A program made the position numbers and the translations under genes. From positions 1,922,001 through 1,986,000 of the forward strand of contig NZ_CP061379.1 in NCBI RefSeq assembly GCF_015624505.1: 64,000 bases of DNA, given 5' to 3'. Positions 858-12,241 of this stretch are shown in pieces (position 1 is the stretch's first letter; each line of letters starts with the position of its first letter). The notes beneath the pieces are model-generated. The model ran no database searches. It was given only the letters and a program-made list of their open reading frames with translations, and was not told the DNA's origin. This DNA comes from Bradyrhizobium commune. GTDB lineage: Bacteria > Pseudomonadota > Alphaproteobacteria > Rhizobiales > Xanthobacteraceae.

Positions 858-1841
858 ATGGCCGCATTGGAATCCTGCCCCGTGCAACACAAACGCGATC
901 ACCGCATCCTCCGCAGCCGACATTTTCACAAGATGCAGCGGCGGCATTTCCTGGTTTTCGATGTGCTGCCCTTCGTCGTCACACTGGTTGCGCTAGGACT
1001 GCTGTTCTACCGCCCGATCGGTCCGATGGAGTTCGGCCTGTTGTTCAGCTTCTGGTTGATCACCGGCCTTGGCCTGACCGTCGGCTATCACCGCCTGTTC
1101 ACCCATCGCGCCTTTGCGACATCGACCACGATGAGCGCGGTCCTGATCGTCATGGGATCGATGGCCGGCCGCGGCCCGATGCTGTCCTGGGCGGCGATGC
1201 ACCGGCGGCACCACGAACTGTCCGATCATGACGGCGATCTGCATTCGCCGCGCCTGCATGGTGACGGCCTGCTGGGCCGGCTGCGCGGCCTTCTGCACGC
1301 GCACCTGACCTGGATGACCGAGCACGATTATCCCAACGTCGCCCATTATGTGCCGGACCTGATGGCGAACCGCACGCTGGTCGCGGTCAACAGCTATTAT
1401 TACAGCTCGGCCGCGCTCGGCCTGCTGCTGCCGGCCGCGATCGGCGGCCTTGCCACGATGAGCCTGTGGAGCGCGCTGAGTGGCCTGCTGTGGGGCGGCG
1501 TGGTCCGCATGTTCGTGGTCGAGCAGACCATGTCCGCCATCAATTCGATCATGCACACATTTGGCGCCCAGCCCTTCGTCACCCGTGACGACAACAGCCG
1601 GAATCTCGGCGTGATGGCCTGGCTCGCCTGGGGCGAGGGCTGGCACAACAACCATCACGCCTTTCCTTACTCAGCGGCCTTCGGCCTGCGCTGGTTCGAG
1701 TTCGATCCCGGCTTCATCTTCATCCGCGCGCTGGAAGCGCTTGGGCTCGCCTGGGACGTCAAGGTGCCGAGCGAAGAGAAGATCGCGCGGCGCATGCTGC
1801 GGCAGCCGGGCGATGCGGCGCCCGACCTGGAGACGGGCTAA
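858..1841 (+). CDS. membrane acyl-CoA/acyl-lipid delta-9-type desaturase
   Basis: Non-haem di-iron fatty acid desaturase of the stearoyl-CoA desaturase/DesC family, which inserts a double bond into an acyl chain at the membrane. Counting from the ATG at 858, all three histidine boxes are present: HRLFTH (about 78-83), HRRHH (115-119) and HNNHH (263-267). Hydrophobic segments lie between them in the usual order, and the 327-residue length is normal. A frame extension reaches a TTG at 831, and ATG 933 (MQRRHF, just before the first membrane segment) is another possible start; none has a convincing ribosome site. It lies 38 bp before the MBOAT gene on the same strand, so it is likely co-transcribed with the acyltransferase cassette. 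Confidence 0.9.
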   Translation: MAALESCPVQHKRDHRILRSRHFHKMQRRHFLVFDVLPFVVTLVALGLLFYRPIGPMEFGLLFSFWLITGLGLTVGYHRLFTHRAFATSTTMSAVLIVMGSMAGRGPMLSWAAMHRRHHELSDHDGDLHSPRLHGDGLLGRLRGLLHAHLTWMTEHDYPNVAHYVPDLMANRTLVAVNSYYYSSAALGLLLPAAIGGLATMSLWSALSGLLWGGVVRMFVVEQTMSAINSIMHTFGAQPFVTRDDNSRNLGVMAWLAWGEGWHNNHHAFPYSAAFGLRWFEFDPGFIFIRALEALGLAWDVKVPSEEKIARRMLRQPGDAAPDLETG

Positions 1842-1879
1842 GGCCCGACGTCCGGCGATGACGGCGCAGCGCTGAACCG

Positions 1880-3262
1880 ATGCTGTTCAACGACTACCCC
1901 TTTCTCCTGGTCTTCCTGCCGGCAGCGCTGCTGATCTGCCGTCTGGCCGATCCCTATCCGCACTTGCGGATCGGGGTGCAGGTCGCGCTGTCGCTCGCCT
2001 TCTATGCCTGGGGCAGCCCGTCCTTCATTCTGCTGCTGATCGCCTCGATCGCCGTCAACTGGCTCGCCTCGGTTGCCTCCGGACGGATGAAGTGGAAGGC
2101 GGTGCTGAAGATCGTGATCGTGCTCGATATCGGCGTGCTGGCGCTGTTCAAATACGCCAATTTCCTGCTCGCCAATCTCGGCCTGGTGCTCGGCTCGAAT
2201 TTGCCGACGCTCGACATCGGGCTGCCGCTCGGCATCTCCTTCTTCACCTTCCACCACATCATGTATCTGGTCGACCTGAGGCGCGGCAAGGCGCCGCTCT
2301 ATGCGCTCGACCGCTACGCGCTCTACATCGCCTTCTTTCCGCAGGCGATCGCGGGGCCGCTCGCGCGCTGGTCGGAAGTGATGCATCAGTTCGGCCGTCA
2401 GGTCTATGTGCCGGGCTGGCAGCGCCGGTTCTGCATCGCGACCTGCTTCATCACGCTCGGCCTGTTCCAGAAAGTCGCGATCGCCGACAGCATCGCGCAT
2501 CTGCTCGATCCGATCTATGCGCAAGCGGCGGACGGACCGCTCGGACGCGGCGACGCCTGGCTCGCCTTCTGCTTCTCCTTCCAGATCCTGTTCGACTTCT
2601 CCGGCTATTCCGACATCGCGATCGGCCTCGGCCTGCTGTTCGGCGTGCAGCTGCCCTACAATTTCAATGCGCCGCTGCGCTCGACCAACATCCAGGATTT
2701 CTGGCAGCGCTGGCACATCACGCTGATGCTGTTTCTGCGCGACTACGTGTTCTATCCGCTGGTCAATTTGCGCCTGCTGCCGCGGCGCTGGTTGCCGGTG
2801 CAGTTCTTCGGCGCGATGCTGGTCACCATGGCGCTGTGCGGCCTGTGGCATGGCGCGAGCTGGACTTTTGTGCTGTGGGGCGTGCTGCACGGTCTTGCTC
2901 AGGTCGTTTGTTCGTTGTGGCGGCGCTACGGCCCGCACTTCCCGTCCTGGCTCGGCTGGGCGCTCACGGTGTTGTTCGTGCTCGCGACCGGCGTGATCTT
3001 TCGCGCCGGCTCGGTCGAGGCTGCGTGGCACGTCTTTGCCGGGCTGGCCCAGCCGTTGCCGCTCGCACGCGGGCAGCATTTGTGGCCGCTGATCTTGGCG
3101 CCGTTGTCCGCCTTCCTGCTGCCGGCAAGCCAGGACATCGTTGCGTTCCTCACGCGCCGTCCGAATCCGTTTTTGGCCGGCGTGCTCGGCATCGGCCTGT
3201 TCGCTTTGCTGCTCCACATGGGTGGTCGGGATCTTCATGAGTTCGTCTACTTCAAGTTTTGA
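1880..3262 (+). CDS. MBOAT-family O-acyltransferase (AlgI/DltB-like)
   Basis: A 460-residue polytopic membrane protein of the MBOAT family. The diagnostic regions are QAIAGPLARW near residue 156, FQILFDFSGYSDIAIG in the middle, then QRWHITLMLFLRDYVFYPL, and the LWHGASWTFVLWGVLHG segment with the catalytic-type histidine at 324 and a second at 337. Known members pass an acyl group from a cytoplasmic donor to an extracytoplasmic acceptor: alginate for AlgI, teichoic acid for DltB. Its stop overlaps the start of the SGNH-like gene by 26 bp, the usual MBOAT/SGNH pairing. The nearby acyl-AMP ligase and carrier protein suggest that its donor is acyl-ACP; that is inference. Confidence 0.9.
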   Translation: MLFNDYPFLLVFLPAALLICRLADPYPHLRIGVQVALSLAFYAWGSPSFILLLIASIAVNWLASVASGRMKWKAVLKIVIVLDIGVLALFKYANFLLANLGLVLGSNLPTLDIGLPLGISFFTFHHIMYLVDLRRGKAPLYALDRYALYIAFFPQAIAGPLARWSEVMHQFGRQVYVPGWQRRFCIATCFITLGLFQKVAIADSIAHLLDPIYAQAADGPLGRGDAWLAFCFSFQILFDFSGYSDIAIGLGLLFGVQLPYNFNAPLRSTNIQDFWQRWHITLMLFLRDYVFYPLVNLRLLPRRWLPVQFFGAMLVTMALCGLWHGASWTFVLWGVLHGLAQVVCSLWRRYGPHFPSWLGWALTVLFVLATGVIFRAGSVEAAWHVFAGLAQPLPLARGQHLWPLILAPLSAFLLPASQDIVAFLTRRPNPFLAGVLGIGLFALLLHMGGRDLHEFVYFKF

Positions 3263-4247
3263 CACCGATCCCGCTTGGGGCAGAAGCCTGATGGCGTGCC
3301 TGGGCGCGCTGACCGGCGCCGCATTGCTGGTGCTCGCGCTGATGGTGCTGGTCGATCCCTATGACAGCGGCAAGCTTGGACTGCTCGGCATCGACGGCGT
3401 CGACAATCGTCTCACCCAGATCACGGCGGCGAGCCGCGCACGCGACCCGAATTTCAACGCGGCCATCCTCGGCAATTCGACGGCGCAGTTGATCGAGCCG
3501 GCGGAATTGTCGCGCGCGACCGGCCTGCGCTTCGTGCAGCTCTACATGACCGGTTCGGCTCCGCGCGAGCAGCTCGCGGTGCTCGACTTCTTCCTGCGCA
3601 ATCACCGGCAGGTTGGGGCGCTGGTGATCGCTGCCGACCCCGGCTGGTGCGTGCATGCGCGGCCGAAAGAGGAGGGCGCGCCATTTCCCTACTGGCTCTA
3701 TGACAGGAGCGTCGTCACCTACGCGGTGCGGCTGATCTCCTGGCAGGCGATCGAGCAGGCATTTCAGCGGCTCGGCATCGGGCTCGGCTGGCGGCAGCGG
3801 ATGAATCCGGACGGCTTTGTCAGCTATGAGGACATCTGGCCGCCCGGCCAGTTCAAGGAGATCGGTCAGCCCAGGGATCCTGCGCCGGCAGCATCCGCCG
3901 AGGCGCGTGCGGCATTTTCCGAGATCGCTGCACTGGAGGAGATCGTCAGAAAGCTGCCGGCCGACGTACCGATCGTGATCATCGTGCCGCCGACCTTTGC
4001 GGCCACCGTGCCGAGGCCCGGCACGGATGCCGCGCTGGAGCGCAGCGCCTGCGACGCCGCGCTGAAGACAATCGTGGCGGGACGGCCGCGCAGCAATTTC
4101 ATCAGCTATCGCGTCGACAACGAGCTGACCCGCGACCGCGGCAATTTTGCCGACTTCATCCACTATCGTCCGAAACTCGCGCGCGCGATCGAGCGGGGCA
4201 TCATCGCGAGCCTGCGCGACGGCGAGAAGGCGAAGATCGATTTCTGA
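3237..4247 (+). CDS. SGNH-like membrane-anchored partner of the MBOAT protein (DltD/AlgJ-like role)
   Basis: A 336-residue protein. The frame is open from 3141, but the ATG at 3237 fits best because residues 18-40 from it form a single signal-anchor helix, as in DltD, AlgJ and AlgX. After the anchor, AAILGNSTAQL places a serine in a GNS block (S81) and the C-terminus has DFIHYRP (D306, H309), the DxxH end of an SGNH triad. Sequence in between is divergent, so activity is uncertain. It overlaps the MBOAT gene and is probably translationally coupled. Its TGA stop (4245-4247) forms one arm of a hairpin shared with the convergent ligase gene. Confidence 0.75.
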   Translation: MSSSTSSFDTDPAWGRSLMACLGALTGAALLVLALMVLVDPYDSGKLGLLGIDGVDNRLTQITAASRARDPNFNAAILGNSTAQLIEPAELSRATGLRFVQLYMTGSAPREQLAVLDFFLRNHRQVGALVIAADPGWCVHARPKEEGAPFPYWLYDRSVVTYAVRLISWQAIEQAFQRLGIGLGWRQRMNPDGFVSYEDIWPPGQFKEIGQPRDPAPAASAEARAAFSEIAALEEIVRKLPADVPIVIIVPPTFAATVPRPGTDAALERSACDAALKTIVAGRPRSNFISYRVDNELTRDRGNFADFIHYRPKLARAIERGIIASLRDGEKAKIDF

Positions 4248-4262
4248 ACCGCAGGCGGTTCA
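4245..4262. terminator. palindrome containing both convergent stop codons
   Basis: TGAACCGC-AG-GCGGTTCA is a perfect 8-bp inverted repeat. Its left end is the TGA of the SGNH-like gene and its right end, read on the minus strand, is the TGA of the acyl-AMP ligase gene. It may act as a compact two-way 3' hairpin. There is no T-tract, so intrinsic termination is not certain. Confidence 0.45.
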
Positions 4263-5960
4263 GGAAATCTCTTCGAAGCCGCCGTCGCGCCAGAGTTTTC
4301 GTGCCAGCTTGCGCTGGATCTTGCCGCTGGTGGTTTTTGGCAGGGCGCCCGGGCGGATCAGCGCGATGTGCCGGGCGGAGAGTTCGTGATTGTCGACGAC
4401 GGCCTCGCGGATCCGGCCCTTGATCTCTTCGGCGTCGATGGTGTGGCGCGCGGTGCGCTCCACTTCCTGCACGATGACGAGGCTCTCCTCGCCATGTTCG
4501 TCAGGGACAGAAAACGCCGCGCCGCAGTTTTCGCGCAATGCGCTGTCCAGCGCCTGCACCGTGCGCTCGATGTCCTGCGGATAATGGTTGATGCCGCGGA
4601 TGATGATCAGGTCCTTGATCCGCCCGGTGACGAACAATTCGCCTGTTGCGTCGAGGAAGCCGAGATCGCCGGTGCGCAGCCACCTTCCGTCCTCGCCGGC
4701 AATCGCCGCATTCAGCTCCTCGCGCGTCGCCACGTCGTTGCGCCAATAGGCGCGGGCGATATTGGCGCCGCTGACCCAGATTTCGCCGACGCGGTCGGCG
4801 GGAAGCCGCAGGCAGCGCTCGGGTTCGACAATGGCAATATGTTCGCCGACAAGCGCGCGCCCGCAGCTGACCACGATCTGCGCATCCCCGGAATCGATCG
4901 GCATGGCTGCCGCGTGGGCCTGAAGCGCTGCGCGGCTGATGCTGCGTGTGACATAACCGCCACCGCGTGTCCCGCCGGAGATCAACAGCGTCGCCTCCGC
5001 CATGCCGTAGGCCGGATACATCGCGCGCGGATCGAATCCATGCGGCGCGAATGTCGTGACGAATCGCTCGATGGTTTCCGCATGCACCGGCTCGGCGCCA
5101 TTGAGCGCGATCCTGAGCGAGGACAGATCCGTGCCCTCCATCTGGTCGGTGCGATAGCGGCTGACGCAGAGGTCGAAGCCGAAATTCGGGCCGCAGGCGA
5201 CCTCGGCACGATAGTGCGAGATCGCGCGCAGCCAGCCGAGCGGCCGCTGCATGAATGCGTTCGGCGCCATCAGCACGCAAGTCGACCCGACATAGAGCGC
5301 TTGCAGCGCGTTCAGGATCAGTCCCATGTCGTGATAGAGCGGCACCCAATTGACATAGGTCGATTGCCTTGTGTTGCCGAGCGCGAGCCGGATCATCTCG
5401 AGATTGGCGAGCAGATTGGCGTGGCTCACCATCACGCCCTTCGGCTCGGATGTGGAGCCGGAGGTGTATTGCAGGAAGGCGACGTCCTCGGACGTCGGCT
5501 CGGGCAGATCGACCTCTGCACCGGCTTCTCCGGTAAGGTCGACCTCGATCCAGCGGATGTTCTCCTGCGCGAAACGCGCCTGCAAATCGCCGCGCAGCGC
5601 AAAAGCGGAGGTGGTCAGCGCCAGCGCCGGCTCGCAATTGGCGAGGATCGCGGCGCTGGCATCACGCGCGCTGTTTCGGCGCGGCATCATCATCGGTACC
5701 GCGATGATGCCGGCGATCAGGCAGCCGAGGAACGCCACCATGAATTCGATGCCCGGTGGAAACACCAGGATGGCGCGGTCGCCGGGGCGCGCGATGGCGG
5801 TCAGGCGCATCGCAAGCGCGCGCGAGGCCTCATGCAATTGGCGAAAGGTGAGGGCGGCCTCTTCCGTCCCGCGATCGGAGACGAAGACATAGGCGCGATC
5901 GTCGCCCCGGTCCGCCGCACGCCGGGCCAGCAGCGCCACGAGCGAGCGGAAAGTGTCCAT
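4260..5960 (-). CDS. fatty-acyl-AMP ligase (FAAL-type acyl-adenylate synthetase)
   Basis: A 566-residue ANL-superfamily enzyme that adenylates a carboxylic acid and hands it to a carrier protein. The phosphate-binding loop YTSGSTSEPKGV is at residues 165-176. YPAYGMAEATLLISGG is the A5-type motif in the form typical of FAALs rather than acyl-CoA ligases. GRIKDLIIIRGINHYPQDIE is the hinge/A8 region, also FAAL-like, and KTTSGKIQR carries the C-terminal lysine. It starts 25 bp after the carrier protein gene on the same strand, which supports acyl-AMP to acyl-ACP transfer. It converges with the MBOAT/SGNH pair. The chain length of the acid cannot be inferred. Confidence 0.88.
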   Translation of the reverse strand: MDTFRSLVALLARRAADRGDDRAYVFVSDRGTEEAALTFRQLHEASRALAMRLTAIARPGDRAILVFPPGIEFMVAFLGCLIAGIIAVPMMMPRRNSARDASAAILANCEPALALTTSAFALRGDLQARFAQENIRWIEVDLTGEAGAEVDLPEPTSEDVAFLQYTSGSTSEPKGVMVSHANLLANLEMIRLALGNTRQSTYVNWVPLYHDMGLILNALQALYVGSTCVLMAPNAFMQRPLGWLRAISHYRAEVACGPNFGFDLCVSRYRTDQMEGTDLSSLRIALNGAEPVHAETIERFVTTFAPHGFDPRAMYPAYGMAEATLLISGGTRGGGYVTRSISRAALQAHAAAMPIDSGDAQIVVSCGRALVGEHIAIVEPERCLRLPADRVGEIWVSGANIARAYWRNDVATREELNAAIAGEDGRWLRTGDLGFLDATGELFVTGRIKDLIIIRGINHYPQDIERTVQALDSALRENCGAAFSVPDEHGEESLVIVQEVERTARHTIDAEEIKGRIREAVVDNHELSARHIALIRPGALPKTTSGKIQRKLARKLWRDGGFEEIS

Positions 5961-5985
5961 TGGTCTGTGCCGGGTTCAACCGCCC

Positions 5986-6240
5986 TCAGGCGGCGGAGCG
6001 GATCGCGCGCTTGTTGGCGAGATATCGCGACAGCCCCTCAACGGTCGGGTGGTCGTAAAAGTCGTCGGTCGACAGTTCGAGGTCGAGCTTCTCCTCGAGT
6101 TCCATCATGAAATAGACAAGCATCGCCGAATCAAGCCCGAGGCGATTGAATTTTGTGCTGAGGTCGACCCGGTCCCTCGAGATTCGCAGGATATTGGCCA
6201 GCGCAGTAACGCAAAAATCCGAAATCTGCTCGCGTGTCAT
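5986..6240 (-). CDS. acyl carrier protein
   Basis: An 84-residue carrier protein. The frame is open to 6294, but the ATG at 6240 (MTREQISDF) gives a normal ACP length. The phosphopantetheine site is GLDSAM with serine 38, followed by the acidic helix MMELEEKLDLELS and then YDHPTVEGLSRYL, a standard helix IV. Divergent from household AcpP, it resembles carrier proteins of adenylation clusters. It is the first gene of a two-gene minus-strand operon with the fatty-acyl-AMP ligase, which probably loads it. Confidence 0.9.
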   Translation of the reverse strand: MTREQISDFCVTALANILRISRDRVDLSTKFNRLGLDSAMLVYFMMELEEKLDLELSTDDFYDHPTVEGLSRYLANKRAIRSAA

Positions 6241-6459
6241 TTCATTTCCCAGAAACAGTCGGTACGACAATACGGGCGACCCCGGGGTTGTCAATTTGGC
6301 CGGAACGCCGAAGCGTTGAAGGTTGGGGACTGTTGCTTTCCTGCGTCGTTTTGCTGCTCATTTCGTCCCCGGCTCCCGCGATTTACCGCGGTCGACAGGA
6401 GCGGCGCCCGCCCCTATCCTCCCAAAATTGCCATCTGACGCGCGTGACGGGATTTTCGC

Positions 6460-9400
6460 ATGAGCCGCGCCCGCTTGTTTGCTGCATTTTTGATTCTGGT
6501 CCTGCTGCCCTTCCGGGCCATCGCCCAGCGCGGCAATGATTTTGATTCGCTGCTCGCGCAGATGAATGCAGCGACGCAGGAAGGGCGCTGGGCCGACGGG
6601 CTGGCGGCGGCCCAGAAGCTGGACGTTCTGGTGCGCCGCCGGCAGGGCGCCGACAACATGAACTATGCCGGCGTGCTCCATAACGAGGGCATGTTCCTGC
6701 ACAATCTCGGCCGCTACCCAGAGGCCATCGACAAGTTGAATGCGGCGCTGGCGATCAAGCTGCGCAACAACGACGTCGCCTCCGTGCTGCGCACCTCCAA
6801 CATCCTGGTCGGCGCGCTCGGCGTGCTCGAGCGGCGCGCCGAGGCAACCACGGTGGCCGAACGGGCACTCGCGCTCGGCACCAGCGCGTTCGGCGCCAAC
6901 GACGTCCGCCTCTCGGACACGCTGGCAGCACTCGGCGGACTGGCGCGCGACAAGGAGAACTACCAGGAGGCGGCCGGCTATTTCGAGCGCGTGCTCGCGA
7001 ACTTGCGGGCCGCCAATGCGCCGCCTGTCGATCTCGCCAACGCGATGGACAATCTCGGCGACACCTATGGACGGCTTGGACGTTTCGATGACGGCGAGCG
7101 TCTGCTGAAGCAGGCGATCGATCTGCTCGATCGCAGCTACGGGCAGAACGCTCAGGCCGCGCCGAATTACGACGAGATCTTCAACAACCTCGGCAGCCTC
7201 TACAAGGATGCCGGCCGCTTCGCCGAGGCGGAAGCCGCGATGCGGCGATCACTGGCGATCGTGCGGGCGCGCAGTGGCGAGGATCACCCCAACACCGCGG
7301 CGACCATGGGCAACCTCGCGATCGTGCTCGAGCAGGAGGGGCGTTACACCGAGGCCGAAAAGCTCTACCAGCGCGTCCTGGAGGTCTATGAGAAGGTCTA
7401 TGGCCCGAACCATCCGACCACGGCGATCGGCCTCTACAATCTCGCCGACGTCTATGTCGATCAGGGCAAGGTCGAGGCCGCGGTGGGATTGCAGCAGCGC
7501 GTGCTTGCGATCTACGAGAAGAGCGCCGGCGCCGACAGCCCCGATGTCGGGCGCGCCCTGAACAATCTCGCCAACAGCTATGCGAGCCTCGGGCGCTATG
7601 ACGAGGCGATCGATCTGTTTCGGCGCGCGCTCGCGATCATGGAGCACAAGTTCGGTCAGGGCAGCGGGCCGACCGCAGTGGCGGCGGAGTCGCTGGGGCG
7701 CGGTCTGACCGATGCCGGACATCTCGACGAGGCCGCGCAATATCTCGGCCAGGCGCTCGAGATCAACCGGCGCATGCTCGGCGAGACCCATCCCGAGCTC
7801 ATCAAGTCGCTTGGCAATCTCGGCTTTCTCGAGCTGAAGCGGGACCACGCGGTCGAAGCGCGACGCCTGTTCGATCAGGCGCTCCGGATCGCGCAGGACC
7901 GGTTGGGGCCGCGCCATCACGACACCGTCGCGGCCATCGTTCACCTCGGCAATCTCGACACGCATGAGGGAAAATGGGCCGATGCATTGGTGCGGTTGAG
8001 ACAGGCATCGGCCGTGTTCAACACCGAGCGCAATCCGCAATTCACCCGCTTCGTCGAGCTTGATCCGCTCCTGATCGAGGCGATCTGGCGCGTCACGGAC
8101 GGCCATCCGGACGATGCGGCGAAGGATGAGGCATTTGGCGCCCTCCAACGGGCCCACGAGACCAAGGCAGGCGCGGCGCTGGCGCAGATGGCGGCGCGAT
8201 TTGGCGCCGGCAATGACGCCATCGCGGTGCTGCTGCGGCGCCAGCAGGACCTGAAGGCGAGCCTCGAGGCGCTCGACAAGCGTGTCACGACCGAGCTTGG
8301 CCAGCCTGAGGGCAAGCGCAACGATGCGCTGATCGGCAGCCTCCGCGCGGAATTGGCGCGGACGCAGAAATCCTATGACGACGTCACGGCGCAGCTCGAG
8401 CGCGGCTTCCCGGCCTATGCCGAATTGTCGAGCCCGCAGCCGCTGTCGATCGCGCAGGCGCGAGAGCTGTTGAAGCCGGACGAAGCGCTGGTGGCGTTCA
8501 TCGCATGGTATAACGAGGTCTTCGCCGTCGCGGTGACGCGCGAGACGAGCGCGCTGCGGAAGATCGCGCTCAACAGCAAGCAGATCAGCGACCGGGTGGC
8601 GCATCTGCGGACCAGCCTTGCCAACCCGGAGACGCGCGCGACGTTCGATCTCGACGCTTCGTTTGATCTCTATAGTGCGCTGTTCGGTCCGATCAGCGCA
8701 GACATCGCCGGCAAGCCGAAGCTGCTGGTGGTCCCGGCCGATGCGCTGACCAGCCTGCCGTTCCACGTGCTGGTGACGAAGAAGCCCGATCCCGCATTGG
8801 CTGCCGATGAGCGCTACCGGCAGGCGGCCTGGCTGCTCAACGAGCGCGCGATCACGGTGCTGCCGTCGGTGCCCAGTCTGCGCGCATTGCGCCGCCTGGC
8901 CAGGGAATCGCATGCGACGAAGCCGTTCATCGGATTTGGCGATCCGGTGTTCCAGCGCACATCCCCGGACAAGCCGGCGGGCACCGGGCGCAACGTGCGG
9001 CCGTATCAGGACTACTATCAGGGCTCCACCGTCGATCTCGAACGCCTGCGCACAGGCCTGCCTGCGCTGCCGGAGACCGCGGGCGAGCTTCAGGCCGTGG
9101 CGCGTGCGCTCGGCGCTTCGCCGCAGGACGACGTCAAGCTCGGCCCGGCCGCCACGGTTACCAATGTCGGCACGCTGCCGCTGGATCAGTACCGCGTCGT
9201 CGATTTCGCTACCCACGGCCTTGTCGCCGGCGAGGTCAACGGCCTCAGTGAGCCTGCGCTGGTGCTGACACTGCCGGACCGGCCGACCAGCGAAGACGAC
9301 GGCCTGCTCACCGCAAGCCGGATCGCCAAGCTCAAGCTCGACGCGGATTGGGCGGTGCTGTCCGCCTGCAACACGGCCGCCGGCGACAAACCCGGCGCGG

Positions 9401-9657
9401 AAGGCCTGTCGGGCCTCGCGCGCGCGTTCTTCTATGCCGGCGCGCGGGCGCTGCTGGTCTCGCACTGGCCGGTCGATTCCGATGCGGCCGTGCGGCTGAC
9501 CACGGGCGCGTTCTCCGAGCTGACCGCGCATCCCGGCATCGGCCGCGCCGAAGCGCTGCGGCGGTCGATGAAAGCGCTGATCGCCGATCGCTCGTCGCCA
9601 CGGAACGCCGATCCGGCCGTCTGGGCGCCGTTCGTGCTGGTCGGCGAGGGCGGTTGA
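6460..9657 (+). CDS. secreted TPR-CHAT domain protein
   Basis: A 1065-residue protein. The N-terminal residues form a signal peptide (MSRARLFAAFLILVLLPFRA, then IAQ). About 60-520 are tandem TPRs of the 42-residue kinesin-light-chain type, with repeated units such as LGRYDEAIDLFRRAL. A helical linker of about 200 residues follows, and about 750-1063 is a CHAT caspase-like domain. Both members of the CHAT dyad are seen: histidine 919 in FATHG and cysteine 970 in LSACNTA, followed by ARAFFYAGARALLVSHWPV. TPR-CHAT proteins are proposed proteases, and some act in defence or cell death, but a signal peptide places this one outside the cytoplasm. The gene following at 9721 may be co-transcribed. 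Confidence 0.88.
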   Translation: MSRARLFAAFLILVLLPFRAIAQRGNDFDSLLAQMNAATQEGRWADGLAAAQKLDVLVRRRQGADNMNYAGVLHNEGMFLHNLGRYPEAIDKLNAALAIKLRNNDVASVLRTSNILVGALGVLERRAEATTVAERALALGTSAFGANDVRLSDTLAALGGLARDKENYQEAAGYFERVLANLRAANAPPVDLANAMDNLGDTYGRLGRFDDGERLLKQAIDLLDRSYGQNAQAAPNYDEIFNNLGSLYKDAGRFAEAEAAMRRSLAIVRARSGEDHPNTAATMGNLAIVLEQEGRYTEAEKLYQRVLEVYEKVYGPNHPTTAIGLYNLADVYVDQGKVEAAVGLQQRVLAIYEKSAGADSPDVGRALNNLANSYASLGRYDEAIDLFRRALAIMEHKFGQGSGPTAVAAESLGRGLTDAGHLDEAAQYLGQALEINRRMLGETHPELIKSLGNLGFLELKRDHAVEARRLFDQALRIAQDRLGPRHHDTVAAIVHLGNLDTHEGKWADALVRLRQASAVFNTERNPQFTRFVELDPLLIEAIWRVTDGHPDDAAKDEAFGALQRAHETKAGAALAQMAARFGAGNDAIAVLLRRQQDLKASLEALDKRVTTELGQPEGKRNDALIGSLRAELARTQKSYDDVTAQLERGFPAYAELSSPQPLSIAQARELLKPDEALVAFIAWYNEVFAVAVTRETSALRKIALNSKQISDRVAHLRTSLANPETRATFDLDASFDLYSALFGPISADIAGKPKLLVVPADALTSLPFHVLVTKKPDPALAADERYRQAAWLLNERAITVLPSVPSLRALRRLARESHATKPFIGFGDPVFQRTSPDKPAGTGRNVRPYQDYYQGSTVDLERLRTGLPALPETAGELQAVARALGASPQDDVKLGPAATVTNVGTLPLDQYRVVDFATHGLVAGEVNGLSEPALVLTLPDRPTSEDDGLLTASRIAKLKLDADWAVLSACNTAAGDKPGAEGLSGLARAFFYAGARALLVSHWPVDSDAAVRLTTGAFSELTAHPGIGRAEALRRSMKALIADRSSPRNADPAVWAPFVLVGEGG

Positions 9658-9720
9658 CGGCGGCCGAAGAAAGCCGAAACTGGCCCGCAAAAGAAGAAGT
9701 GGTTCCGGGAGGAATTTGAG

Positions 9721-10983
9721 ATGCGGTTGATCCTCATCGCGACGATGGCGGTTCTCATGGTCGGACAGGCGGCAGCCAGGGACGTGTTGTCGGGCGCGAG
9801 CCTCTATGACGATGTGGCGCGCTACGCCTCCTTCGGCCTGCATCGCTTCGGCACGCCCGGCGATCGCGCCACCGCCGACTGGATCGCCACTGAGCTTGGC
9901 GCCGCCGGCTTCGCGATCAAATTCCAGCCCGTCGTGCTCGGCCGGCAATATGTTGTTGAGCGAGCGACCGCGGACGCCGCCGGCACGACGGTCGAGGCGA
10001 CGCCGTTCTGGTGGCCGCCGGAGGACAAGGCCAGCTTCCAGCTGTCCGCGCCGCTTGCGCGCGATGGCGACGTCGCTGGCAAAATCCTCATGGTCGATCT
10101 GCCCTTTGATCGCGGCGCCTATCTCGGTCCCGGCCATCGCGCGGCGATCGCGGAAGCGGCAGCGAAGAAGCCGGCTGCGATTTTGCTGATGATCGGCAAC
10201 CCCGCCGACGATCGTTTTGCCTACAACGTCACACAGGAGGATGCGCCCTGGCCGGTGCCGGTGATGGTGGTCGGCGCCAGGGCACGCGGCACATTCGAAC
10301 GCGCGCTTGCCTCAGGCGCGCCGGCGACGTTCGACGTCGCCGGTCACTACGAGCGCAACGTCGCCGGCCGCAACGTCATCGCCGAGATCGGCGCCGGCCG
10401 CGCGCCGACCGTCGTCGTCTCCACGCCGATGACGGGCTGGTACAGCTGCGTCTGCGAGCGCGGCCCTGGCATCGCCAATTTCCTCGCGCTGGCGCGCACG
10501 GCGGCCGCGGAAAAATGGCCGGCGCATTTCGTCTTCATCGCCACCGCCGGTCACGAGATCGGGCATGGCGGCATGGAGCTGTTCTTGAAAGATGGCGCGC
10601 CGGCGCCAAAGGAGACGCTGGCCTGGATTCATTTCGGCTCGTCGAACGCCTGCTACGCCTTTGCGGAAGGCACCCGCACCGAGCGGCCCGAGCAGGAGCG
10701 CTATCTCGTGCTGAGCAAATCAGCCGTCAAGCTGACCGACGAGGCCTTTGCCAAGGTCGACGCAAAGCGACTGGTGACGGAGAAGCAGGCGGTCGGTGAG
10801 CTCCGCGACGTGCATGCGGCGGGCTACGCCAACTTCCTCGGCATGGCCGGCCGCCATCAAACTTTCCACACGCCGGCGGACGATCTCGGTGCGACTGGGC
10901 CCGAAATCCTCGAGCCGGTCGCCCGCGCCTTCGTCGATGCTGCGCGAAAGATCGTCGAACGCGGCGACGCCGCGTTCAGATAA
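9721..10983 (+). CDS. M28-peptidase-like secreted protein, metal site degenerate
   Basis: A 420-residue protein with a signal peptide (MRLILIATMAVLMVGQAAA) and the general plan of an M28 zinc aminopeptidase. There is an N-terminal HRFGTPGDRATADWIATEL region, a PA-like insert around 60-200, and a C-terminal catalytic-like domain from about 220. The usual first ligand motif (HxD) reads STPMTGWY, the GANDN-type motif reads RGPGIANF, and the EE pair reads AGHEIGHGG; FHTPADDL near the end keeps a histidine. Most canonical zinc ligands are therefore absent. It may be a pseudoenzyme or use other ligands. GGAGG upstream (within 9706-9713) supports the ATG. It lies 63 bp after the CHAT gene. Confidence 0.7.
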   Translation: MRLILIATMAVLMVGQAAARDVLSGASLYDDVARYASFGLHRFGTPGDRATADWIATELGAAGFAIKFQPVVLGRQYVVERATADAAGTTVEATPFWWPPEDKASFQLSAPLARDGDVAGKILMVDLPFDRGAYLGPGHRAAIAEAAAKKPAAILLMIGNPADDRFAYNVTQEDAPWPVPVMVVGARARGTFERALASGAPATFDVAGHYERNVAGRNVIAEIGAGRAPTVVVSTPMTGWYSCVCERGPGIANFLALARTAAAEKWPAHFVFIATAGHEIGHGGMELFLKDGAPAPKETLAWIHFGSSNACYAFAEGTRTERPEQERYLVLSKSAVKLTDEAFAKVDAKRLVTEKQAVGELRDVHAAGYANFLGMAGRHQTFHTPADDLGATGPEILEPVARAFVDAARKIVERGDAAFR

Positions 10984-11020
10984 GCATGATGGAGTTAAGT
11001 TCGATCGGCTGTCCAGGTGT

Positions 11021-11043
11021 CACCTCTCCCTTCGGGAGAGGTG
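11021..11043. repeat. palindromic CTCTCCC hairpin between convergent genes
   Basis: CACCTCTCCC-TTC-GGGAGAGGTG is a perfect 10-bp stem. It lies in the 114-bp gap between the convergent M28-like and L,D-transpeptidase genes. The same core is in the larger elements at about 31.8-31.95, 37.17-37.23 and 61.69-61.82 kb, so this is a minimal copy of a dispersed palindrome. It may also work as a two-way terminator. Confidence 0.65.
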
Positions 11044-11097
11044 TTCGGAGTTCTTGGCCGGCATCGATTTAACCTAACCAAAATTCCGCGTTTAGCC

Positions 11098-11880
11098 TCA
11101 GTTCTGATAGTAGTAATTGCGCGGCTGATAATACTGCCGGGGCTGCTGCTGATAGTAGCCCTGCTGGCCATAGCCCTGGTCGTAAGAGGGCTGCGGTTGC
11201 GGCAGCTGCTGGTAGACCTGCGTGCCATAGGGGCGGTTGATCGGGCGTGGTGCCGGATAGCGCGCGCCGGTGTCGCTGCCGTCGGCCGGATAGATGTAAT
11301 TGTCGTCCTGCGGCATGTAGCGGCGGGCGGGCTGGACCGGCGGCGTCAGGTTCACGGGATCGCCAGTGGTGGCGTACTGCTCCTCGCCCGGCTGCTGCGC
11401 GCGGGCGACGGCATTGGCGTTGCGGCCGCGTGGATTGCGCGCGAGCGCCACCTGTGCCGAGCCGGTCAGCGTCACCGTGGTGTTGAGCACGCCCTGCTCC
11501 TGCACCAGCGCGTAGAGCGTCGAGGCATTCTGGCGCGACAGCCGCACGCAGCCATGCGACGCCGGCGTGCCGAGCCGGCCGACGGAGTCGGTGCCGTGGA
11601 TGGCGTGCCCGACCTTGGTGAAGAAGATCGAGTGCGGCATCGGCGCATCGTCGAATTCCTTGGAGAAGTGATCCTCTTCCATGCGGAAGGCGCGGAACGA
11701 ACCGGCCGGTGTCTCGCGCGAGGGGATGCCGGTCGAGACCGGCCAGTGATAGCGCGTGACGCCGTCGACCACGACGGTCATCTGCTGATTGTCCTTGTCG
11801 ACGGTAATGTCGACCTTGGCCTGCGCGGTGCCCGCGCTCAAAAGCATCAAGGAGGTGAACGCAATGAAAAAGGAACGCAT
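11098..11880 (-). CDS. L,D-transpeptidase (YkuD domain) with Q/Y/P-rich tail
   Basis: A 260-residue exported protein that cross-links peptidoglycan or attaches proteins to it. The start at 11880 (MRSFFIAFTS) is chosen over 11913 because GGAGG lies 11 nt upstream and the signal peptide begins there. The YkuD catalytic block HGTDSV...SHGCVRLS has histidine 95 and cysteine 111. From about 150 onward the protein is low-complexity, rich in Gln, Tyr, Pro and Asn (for example QGYGQQGYYQQQP). That kind of tail is common in rhizobial YkuD proteins and may be a flexible cell-wall or secretion segment. Confidence 0.88.
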   Translation of the reverse strand: MRSFFIAFTSLMLLSAGTAQAKVDITVDKDNQQMTVVVDGVTRYHWPVSTGIPSRETPAGSFRAFRMEEDHFSKEFDDAPMPHSIFFTKVGHAIHGTDSVGRLGTPASHGCVRLSRQNASTLYALVQEQGVLNTTVTLTGSAQVALARNPRGRNANAVARAQQPGEEQYATTGDPVNLTPPVQPARRYMPQDDNYIYPADGSDTGARYPAPRPINRPYGTQVYQQLPQPQPSYDQGYGQQGYYQQQPRQYYQPRNYYYQN

Positions 11881-12241
11881 CTGACTTTTGGCCTCCGGCC
11901 TGTTCACGCTCAAGCATGATCCGGAAAAGTGTGGAGCGGTTTTCCGAAAAGATCAGGCTCAAGCAAGTACGCCGCGGCTCTCCGTCGCCCGGCTTGCACT
12001 ATGCTCGCAATCCGGCTTTCGTTCCAGCGGCCTGCCGGCCCATCGTTAACGTGATGCCGGGCGTAAGCAAGGCCGCCTGCTGCCGCGCATGTCCCGGCGG
12101 CGCTGACATTTTCGCGAGCGGGGCGCCCGTTCACGCAGCCGACAATTCGACACAAAGGCGCAACCATTTGGCCGTCCCGGGCGTTGAGTGTTACCTGCCT
12201 CGACAGGCGGCTTTCGCCGCCGTTTACCCTTGGGACTGAAG

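What the first reader, a model, noticed from the sequence alone, without database searches (positions are those of the whole stretch)
858..6240. Dlt-like acyl-transfer cassette built around a fatty-acyl-AMP ligase
Seen: desaturase, MBOAT and SGNH-like genes on the plus strand converge with an acyl carrier protein and an FAAL-type ligase on the minus strand. Known: the DltABCD system has the same four parts (adenylation enzyme, carrier protein, MBOAT DltB, SGNH DltD) and moves D-alanine to the outside of the membrane. Inference: here a fatty acid, perhaps unsaturated by the desaturase, is activated, loaded on the carrier and passed by the MBOAT protein to an outside acceptor such as a polysaccharide, lipid or hopanoid. 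I know of no named system of exactly this composition.
Basis: partly seen in the sequence, partly recalled or inferred. Interest (0 to 1): 0.78.

Follow-up and report, generated by a model that had tools for sequence, protein, structure and literature searches.

The report
Fatty-acid relay to the cell surface
Five neighbouring genes in a Bradyrhizobium soil bacterium look like one machine that activates a fatty acid, hangs it on a carrier protein and hands it through the membrane to something outside the cell, a new variation on systems known for attaching D-alanine or acetyl groups.

Summary
In detail: window 858-6240 holds desaturase, MBOAT and SGNH genes (+) converging on a FAAL-type ligase and an ACP (-), with catalytic motifs intact. 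They behave as a unit. 40 of 242 Bradyrhizobium genomes have the FAAL orthologue; all 39 fetched loci keep the five genes in order (one desaturase cut, one frameshifted). In 20 of 20 sampled genomes without it, the flanks sit together and the cassette is missing (one keeps an ACP scrap). FAAL, ACP, MBOAT and an SGNH or SGNH-like partner recur in other arrangements in two further genera, an Acetobacteraceae bacterium and a cyanobacterium.
Best reading: a carrier-protein-fed MBOAT-SGNH system (Dlt-type donor, PatA-type shuttle) moving a fatty acyl group outward. A 2025 paper says non-Dlt MBOAT/SGNH systems lack a carrier protein. Donor use, chain length and acceptor are unproven. Hopanoid-lipid A is disfavoured: BTAi1 makes it without the cassette.

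The parts
858..1841 (+). membrane-bound fatty acid desaturase (327 aa from this ATG); predicted to act on the carrier-bound acyl chain
   Evidence: PF00487 72 bits; His boxes HRLFTH, HRRHH, HNNHH; 54-56% relatives near FAAL in family f41; tree
1880..3262 (+). MBOAT acyltransferase (460 aa): DltB-like core 1-384, His324, plus C-terminal tail ending FVYFKF (Tyr457)
3050..4247 (+). exchangeable tract (start approximate): MBOAT codons from about 390 on plus the SGNH gene, swapped between two lineages in Bradyrhizobium
   Evidence: identity steps in three pairs; 8 of 8 class-fixed MBOAT columns at 399-451; 48% against 84-87% identity; trees
3237..4247 (+). SGNH-fold partner (336 aa), N-terminal helix 12-39 (predicted membrane anchor), Ser81, Asp306, His309
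4260..5960 (-). fatty-acyl-AMP ligase (FAAL) type adenylating enzyme (566 aa)
   Evidence: PF00501 231 bits; PDB matches include FadD32, FadD23 and FadD28 fatty-acid-AMP ligases
5986..6240 (-). stand-alone acyl carrier protein (84 aa), Ser38 in GLDS; ends 25 nt before the FAAL start on the same strand
   Evidence: PF00550 59 bits

Best explanation
A carrier-protein-fed MBOAT-SGNH system that moves a fatty acyl group out of the cytoplasm. (1) FAAL makes acyl-AMP and loads the fatty acyl onto ACP Ser38. (2) The desaturase, whose nearest relatives found outside the genus also lie near a FAAL gene, modifies the ACP-bound chain, as JamB does on JamC. (3) Acyl-ACP docks on the cytoplasmic side of the MBOAT as DltC does on DltB; His324 helps transfer the acyl to Tyr457 in the C-terminal FVYFKF motif on the periplasmic side. 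(4) The tail hands the acyl to Ser81 of the membrane-anchored SGNH protein. (5) The SGNH protein passes it to an extracytoplasmic acceptor, most likely a cell-envelope glycan or glycolipid. Shown here: gene content, motifs, predicted folds, co-inheritance, and the joint swapping of tail and SGNH. Inferred from Dlt, PatAB and JamABC: every chemical step. The acceptor is a guess; the one hint is a glucan-type exporter beside the ACP gene in genus g13.
Against: No biochemistry. PatA, with the same kind of tail, uses acetyl-CoA (PMC12148441), and this MBOAT is no closer to the DltB model than its paralogues. The ACP is not recognised as DltC (14 bits, cut-off 68), and the ligase is below the curated cut-offs of the FAAL models it matches. 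In Bradyrhizobium the two halves are convergent, so not one operon. No desaturase was found in the 8 MBOAT-bearing loci outside Bradyrhizobium scanned (some cut by contig ends), so it is optional. Only 7 of 80 FAAL loci in the named-genome scan have an MBOAT in the held flanks, 4 of them Bradyrhizobium, so most relatives of this FAAL serve other pathways. In g9 and Crocosphaera the SGNH partner is assigned by place and a GDS/GTS motif (in Crocosphaera also DxxHY) only. PatB-like fold scores are tied with plain esterases. No acceptor is pinned down.
Confidence: 0.73

Rival explanations
1. Two independent pathways side by side: an acetyl-CoA-fed MBOAT-SGNH O-acetyltransferase of PatA/AlgI type, and a separate FAAL-ACP-desaturase trio making an unsaturated acyl-ACP for something else.
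For: PatA, an MBOAT with the same kind of C-terminal motif, uses acetyl-CoA (PMC12148441). Desaturases lie near FAAL without MBOAT in other families. Convergent orientation in Bradyrhizobium.
Against: All five genes are present or absent together, with 12 changes by parsimony on the flank tree, at least 4 of them forced by well-supported branches. ACP, FAAL, MBOAT and the SGNH or SGNH-like gene lie on one strand in g9 and in Acetobacteraceae UBA6159. No PKS- or NRPS-sized frame is in the ORF list of the own 20-kb locus (by eye).
Confidence: 0.16
2. The cassette attaches the hopanoid to lipid A (hopanoid-lipid A of Bradyrhizobium), with the FAAL activating a hopanoid acid.
For: The hopanoid-attaching enzyme was unidentified in 2017 (PMC5613085, passages); the genus fits; ORS278, a producer, carries the cassette (G321 contig 7456587).
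Against: BTAi1, where this lipid A was first described, matches G341 by replicon lengths (8264687 and 228826 against 8264689 and 228826 in Table 1 of PMC3899966). G341 has no FAAL orthologue (best 39%) and only a 40% MBOAT relative. Only 3 of the 24 photosynthetic genomes have the FAAL orthologue.
Confidence: 0.03
3. The acyl group is not a long fatty acid but a short, branched or hydroxy acid that this FAAL-type enzyme accepts; the machine is otherwise as described.
For: JamA, called an acyl-ACP synthetase, loads 5-hexenoic acid (PMC4356899, passages). Another MBOAT locus of the same genome has an ACP and an FkbH-type protein, so carrier-linked MBOATs may handle varied acyl groups.
Against: Six of the 18 best PDB matches are named fatty-acid-AMP or fatty-acyl-adenylate ligases; a desaturase stays in the Bradyrhizobium cassette. 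Neither fixes chain length.
Confidence: 0.25

Closest known systems
DltABCD(X), D-alanylation of teichoic acids
   Same: adenylating enzyme, stand-alone carrier protein, MBOAT with DltB fold, SGNH protein; FXYXXF shuttle motif
   Different: ligase is FAAL-like, not recognised as D-alanine ligase; shuttle motif is fused to the MBOAT instead of on DltX; below cut-off for the DltB and DltC models; no teichoic acid expected in this Gram-negative genus (recalled); extra desaturase
PatA/PatB and other MBOAT-SGNH O-acetylation pairs (AlgI, WssH)
   Same: MBOAT with C-terminal tail and FXYXXF, separate SGNH partner; PatB among the structural matches
   Different: described as acyl-CoA-fed and without a carrier protein (PMC12148441, passages); here FAAL and ACP are inherited with the pair
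JamABC terminal-alkyne trio (acyl-ACP synthetase, membrane desaturase, ACP)
   Same: ligase, membrane desaturase and ACP encoded together
   Different: JamABC primes a PKS-NRPS line; here the partner is an MBOAT-SGNH pair; Jam proteins were not compared by sequence
FkbH-MBOAT-ACP locus in the same genome (L033)
   Same: stand-alone ACP beside an MBOAT ending FVYKAF
   Different: FkbH-domain protein (TIGR01686, 293 bits) instead of FAAL; the protein in the SGNH position showed neither of the two motifs looked for and its fold was not tested

Membership tests
Dlt system | DltB-fold MBOAT with catalytic His | tested here: met
Dlt system | DltB equivalog score | tested here: not met
   TIGR04091 172 bits, cut-off 375; paralogues score alike
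Dlt system | D-alanine-type ligase DltA | tested here: not met
   no DltA model among the best 25 of 106 NCBIfam matches, which are led by NRPS/PKS and fatty-acid-AMP ligase models, all below cut-off
Dlt system | DltC carrier | tested here: not met
   NF003464 14.4 bits, cut-off 68
Dlt system | separate DltX microprotein | not tested
   no search for a small ORF was made; the shuttle motif is on the MBOAT itself
PatAB-type MBOAT-SGNH pair | C-terminal FXYXXF on the MBOAT | tested here: met
   FVYFKF; 49 of 50 loci
PatAB-type MBOAT-SGNH pair | SGNH-fold partner with Ser-Asp-His | tested here: met
   Ser81, Asp306, His309; their geometry was not measured
PatAB-type MBOAT-SGNH pair | acetyl-CoA donor, no carrier protein | not testable with these tools
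   donor use needs an assay; a carrier protein is part of the unit
fatty-acyl-AMP ligase (FAAL) | closest to FAALs among solved structures and family models | tested here: met
   18 PDB sequences at 1e-40 or better: 6 named fatty-acid-AMP or fatty-acyl-adenylate ligase; the top three are named polyketide synthase and the fourth Saframycin Mx1 synthetase B (that these are FAALs is recalled). NCBIfam fatty-acid-AMP ligase models match at 453 and 410 bits, below cut-offs 775 and 975
fatty-acyl-AMP ligase (FAAL) | FAAL-specific insertion | tested here: inconclusive
   aligned with only short gaps to 7r7f through that stretch; its place is recalled and no CoA ligase was aligned as control
JamABC | ligase, membrane desaturase and ACP encoded together | tested here: met
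   FAAL-desaturase-ACP order in Scytonema L162
JamABC | acetylenase or desaturase activity on acyl-ACP | not testable with these tools
   needs an assay

The most novel reading that the evidence does not exclude
There is a general class of carrier-protein-fed MBOAT machines outside Dlt, in which exchangeable loaders (FAAL here, perhaps FkbH in L033) and tailoring enzymes (desaturase, P450) choose the acyl group, and an exchangeable output module (MBOAT tail plus SGNH) sets the hand-over and acceptor. The Bradyrhizobium cassette is its fatty-acyl member, and recombination has swapped the output module as one piece while leaving the loader.
Probability: 0.5. Interest if true: 0.85.

Novelty: new variant of a known kind. 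Interest (0 to 1): 0.71.

Why it matters
The account in PMC12148441 divides bacterial MBOAT-SGNH systems into Dlt (carrier-fed, separate shuttle DltX) and the rest (acyl-CoA-fed, fused shuttle, no carrier). This cassette has a fused shuttle and a co-inherited carrier and FAAL, so the division may not be clean, and lipid-like groups may be put on envelope molecules by this route. The natural swap of tail plus SGNH, starting about where DltB similarity ends, is an evolutionary hint for the shuttle model. ORS278, a legume symbiont in which mutants have been made (PMC5613085), carries the cassette, so it can be tested directly.

Tried and rejected
Hopanoid-lipid A: disfavoured, see rivals. CHAT/TPR gene 6460-9657 and alpha/beta hydrolase 2-655 as parts: rejected; both also occur at the site without the cassette (CHAT in 3 of 20, hydrolase in 2 of 20) and CHAT was matched beside the cassette in only 5 of 39 fetched loci. 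A hairpin between the convergent SGNH and FAAL stops (4245-4262): not kept in the 13 loci printed, not claimed. Sequence-only search of solved structures with an SGNH profile gave 0 matches and Pfam only weak ones (GDSL 5 of 38, SGNH 3 of 38 members); the fold comparison settled the fold. NCBIfam DltB score as a sign of Dlt kinship: rejected, the paralogues score the same. A clean 'FAAL-linked desaturase clade': not borne out; see the full report. Literature: no paper in the held library has 'fatty acyl-AMP ligase'+'MBOAT'+'acyl carrier protein' or 'acyl carrier protein'+'MBOAT'+'SGNH'; 'fatty acyl-AMP ligase'+'O-acyltransferase' gave two papers, off topic by listing; 'MBOAT'+'SGNH'+'DltB'+'Gram-negative'+'fatty acid' gave two, of which passages of PMC9558356 were seen and PMC12423673 only in the listing. 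Most subscription journals are not held.

Full report
What is there. The five genes are at the stated coordinates. The SGNH start codon lies 26 nt inside the MBOAT gene, and ACP and FAAL are 25 nt apart on the other strand. The CHAT/TPR and hydrolase neighbours are not part of the unit.

Is it a unit? The FAAL orthologue is in 40 of 242 Bradyrhizobium genomes (own genome counted) with a clear gap from 69% down to 41% identity; the lower group lies mostly in very long reading frames of NRPS/PKS size. All 39 other loci were fetched, and each has desaturase-MBOAT-SGNH converging on FAAL-ACP; L044's desaturase is cut by the contig end and L071's is frameshifted. In 36 of the 39 the same upstream flank gene is in the fetched stretch; L044 and L059 are on short contigs and L053 lies elsewhere in its genome. 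Of 60 genomes searched for that flank gene, 59 have it; 52 of these 59 have no FAAL orthologue. I fetched 20 of the 52, mostly those nearest to the window in that gene. In 20 of 20 the flanks sit together without the cassette, sometimes with a CHAT, hydrolase or other flank gene between; one (L207) keeps a 49-residue ACP scrap. On a quick tree of the flank gene (37 with, 20 without) presence needs 12 changes by parsimony, of which well-supported branches alone force 4. So the five genes come or go together, more than once.

Elsewhere. In genus g13 (2 of 3 genomes) MBOAT-SGNH converge on FAAL-ACP without a desaturase (in L014 with a solute-binding-protein gene between), and an ABC exporter above the cut-offs of the glucan-exporter models PRK13657 and chvA lies directly upstream of the ACP gene on its strand. 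In g9 (FAAL matches in 3 of 8 genomes) ACP-FAAL-MBOAT and an SGNH-like gene lie on one strand in L115 and L230; in L230 the FAAL is split between frames, and the G117 pieces are cut by contig ends. In L115 that partner has a GDSM motif but no Pfam match and no DxxH match in the scan used. An MBOAT lies within the held flanks in 7 of 80: four Bradyrhizobium, Acetobacteraceae UBA6159 (same-strand MBOAT-SGNH-ACP-FAAL), Crocosphaera MO_167.B6 (FAAL-P450-ACP-MBOAT and a protein with GTS and DxxHY motifs but no Pfam match) and Okeania SIO1I7 (FAAL, an ORF that looks like an acyl-CoA dehydrogenase by eye, ACP, MBOAT; no SGNH found by the profile). Of the other 73, 51 have the FAAL in a frame of 900 residues or more (counted by eye), so this kind of FAAL alone does not predict an MBOAT.

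The desaturase. Relatives stand near FAAL without MBOAT: family f41 (54-56% identical, 3 of 3 loci fetched, of 4 genomes found; in L106 with an ACP and a P450 named by eye and a CMAS-type methyltransferase confirmed by Pfam), family f85 (44%, with an ACP match, 2 of 2 loci fetched, of 3 genomes found) and cyanobacteria L127, L162, L164. On a tree of 17 rows the Bradyrhizobium cassette desaturases and those of f41 are parted by a well-supported branch from a group holding the f85 and cyanobacterial ones and also two of the genome's own paralogues (L220, L222), with a long-branch warning; two other paralogues did not match the profile. So the nearest relatives that I found outside the genus are FAAL-linked, but they were found through FAAL, and no single clean FAAL-linked clade is shown. 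JamABC (passages of PMC4356899) is the precedent for acyl-ACP synthetase, membrane desaturase and ACP working in that order.

Swapped output module. Of 42 loci with all three proteins I set aside 12 divergent rows (L014, L015, L045-L054), leaving 30 close cassettes: SGNH class A 24, class B 6. In a subset of 9 A and 6 B the SGNH proteins are 80-82% identical within and 48% between classes, while FAAL is as similar between (83.7%) as within (83-85%) and MBOAT nearly so (86.5% against 89%). On the FAAL tree the class changes 5 times, on the SGNH tree once (quick trees with few well-supported forks). DNA identity falls from about 80-90% to about 60-70% just after MBOAT codon 390 and recovers around or just after the SGNH stop in three A-B pairs, and stays high in one A-A and one B-B control pair. 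All 8 MBOAT columns that separate the classes lie at 399-451 of 460, that is, in the tail beyond the DltB-like core. Physical closeness alone could explain why tail and SGNH travel together, so this supports a working module but does not prove it.

Function. I commit to outward transfer of a fatty acyl group from ACP through the MBOAT tail and the SGNH protein (0.73; lowered from 0.74 on checking, because the SGNH partner in two of the outside examples rests on place and motifs alone; the novel case went from 0.55 to 0.5 because the L033 partner is not shown to be SGNH). The acyl is probably unsaturated in Bradyrhizobium (inference from the desaturase). The acceptor is open: envelope glycan or glycolipid is my guess, with the glucan exporter in g13 as the only hint. 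Hopanoid-lipid A is disfavoured: BTAi1 (G341 by replicon lengths) has it without the cassette, while ORS278 (G321, length 7456587) carries the cassette.

Novelty. No paper on this composition was found in the held library. It is filed as a new variant of a known kind: it seems to work like Dlt, shares its shuttle with PatA, and fails the curated Dlt models.

Noticed in passing
L033 (G000:C1:5916500-5936400), 5737-11993, - strand: The same genome has another carrier-linked MBOAT locus: FkbH-domain protein, MBOAT ending FVYKAF, a protein in the SGNH position, ACP, and a MaoC/SDR protein. Its acyl group may be a small acid loaded through FkbH (inference).
   Followed up: partly
L106 9070-15298; L108 6491-10727: Operon-like sets desaturase-ACP-methyltransferase(-P450 in L106)-FAAL without MBOAT in two other families (CMAS-type methyltransferase confirmed by Pfam in L106 only); they look like makers of a cyclopropane or methylated acyl-ACP.
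   Followed up: partly
L146 3725-9874 (Crocosphaera MO_167.B6): FAAL, P450, ACP, MBOAT (ends FIYFQF) and an SGNH-like protein in a row: a cyanobacterial carrier-linked MBOAT set with a P450 instead of a desaturase.
   Followed up: partly
L120 5194-7454 (Bradyrhizobium sp. dw_78): A second MBOAT (ends FIYFQF) with a following protein lies a few kb from the cassette.
   Followed up: no
window 6460-9657: A 1065-aa TPR-CHAT protein beside the cassette, variably present at this site with or without the cassette.
   Followed up: partly
L017 6657-10804; L021 8089-10485; L022 9516-13744: A sister MBOAT-SGNH pair (38-42% and 38-39% identical) in other genera of the family, in L017 and L022 followed by a carbamoyltransferase-like ORF (named by eye); no ACP match, and no FAAL match except a 27% relative some 5-6 kb away in L017.
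   Followed up: no
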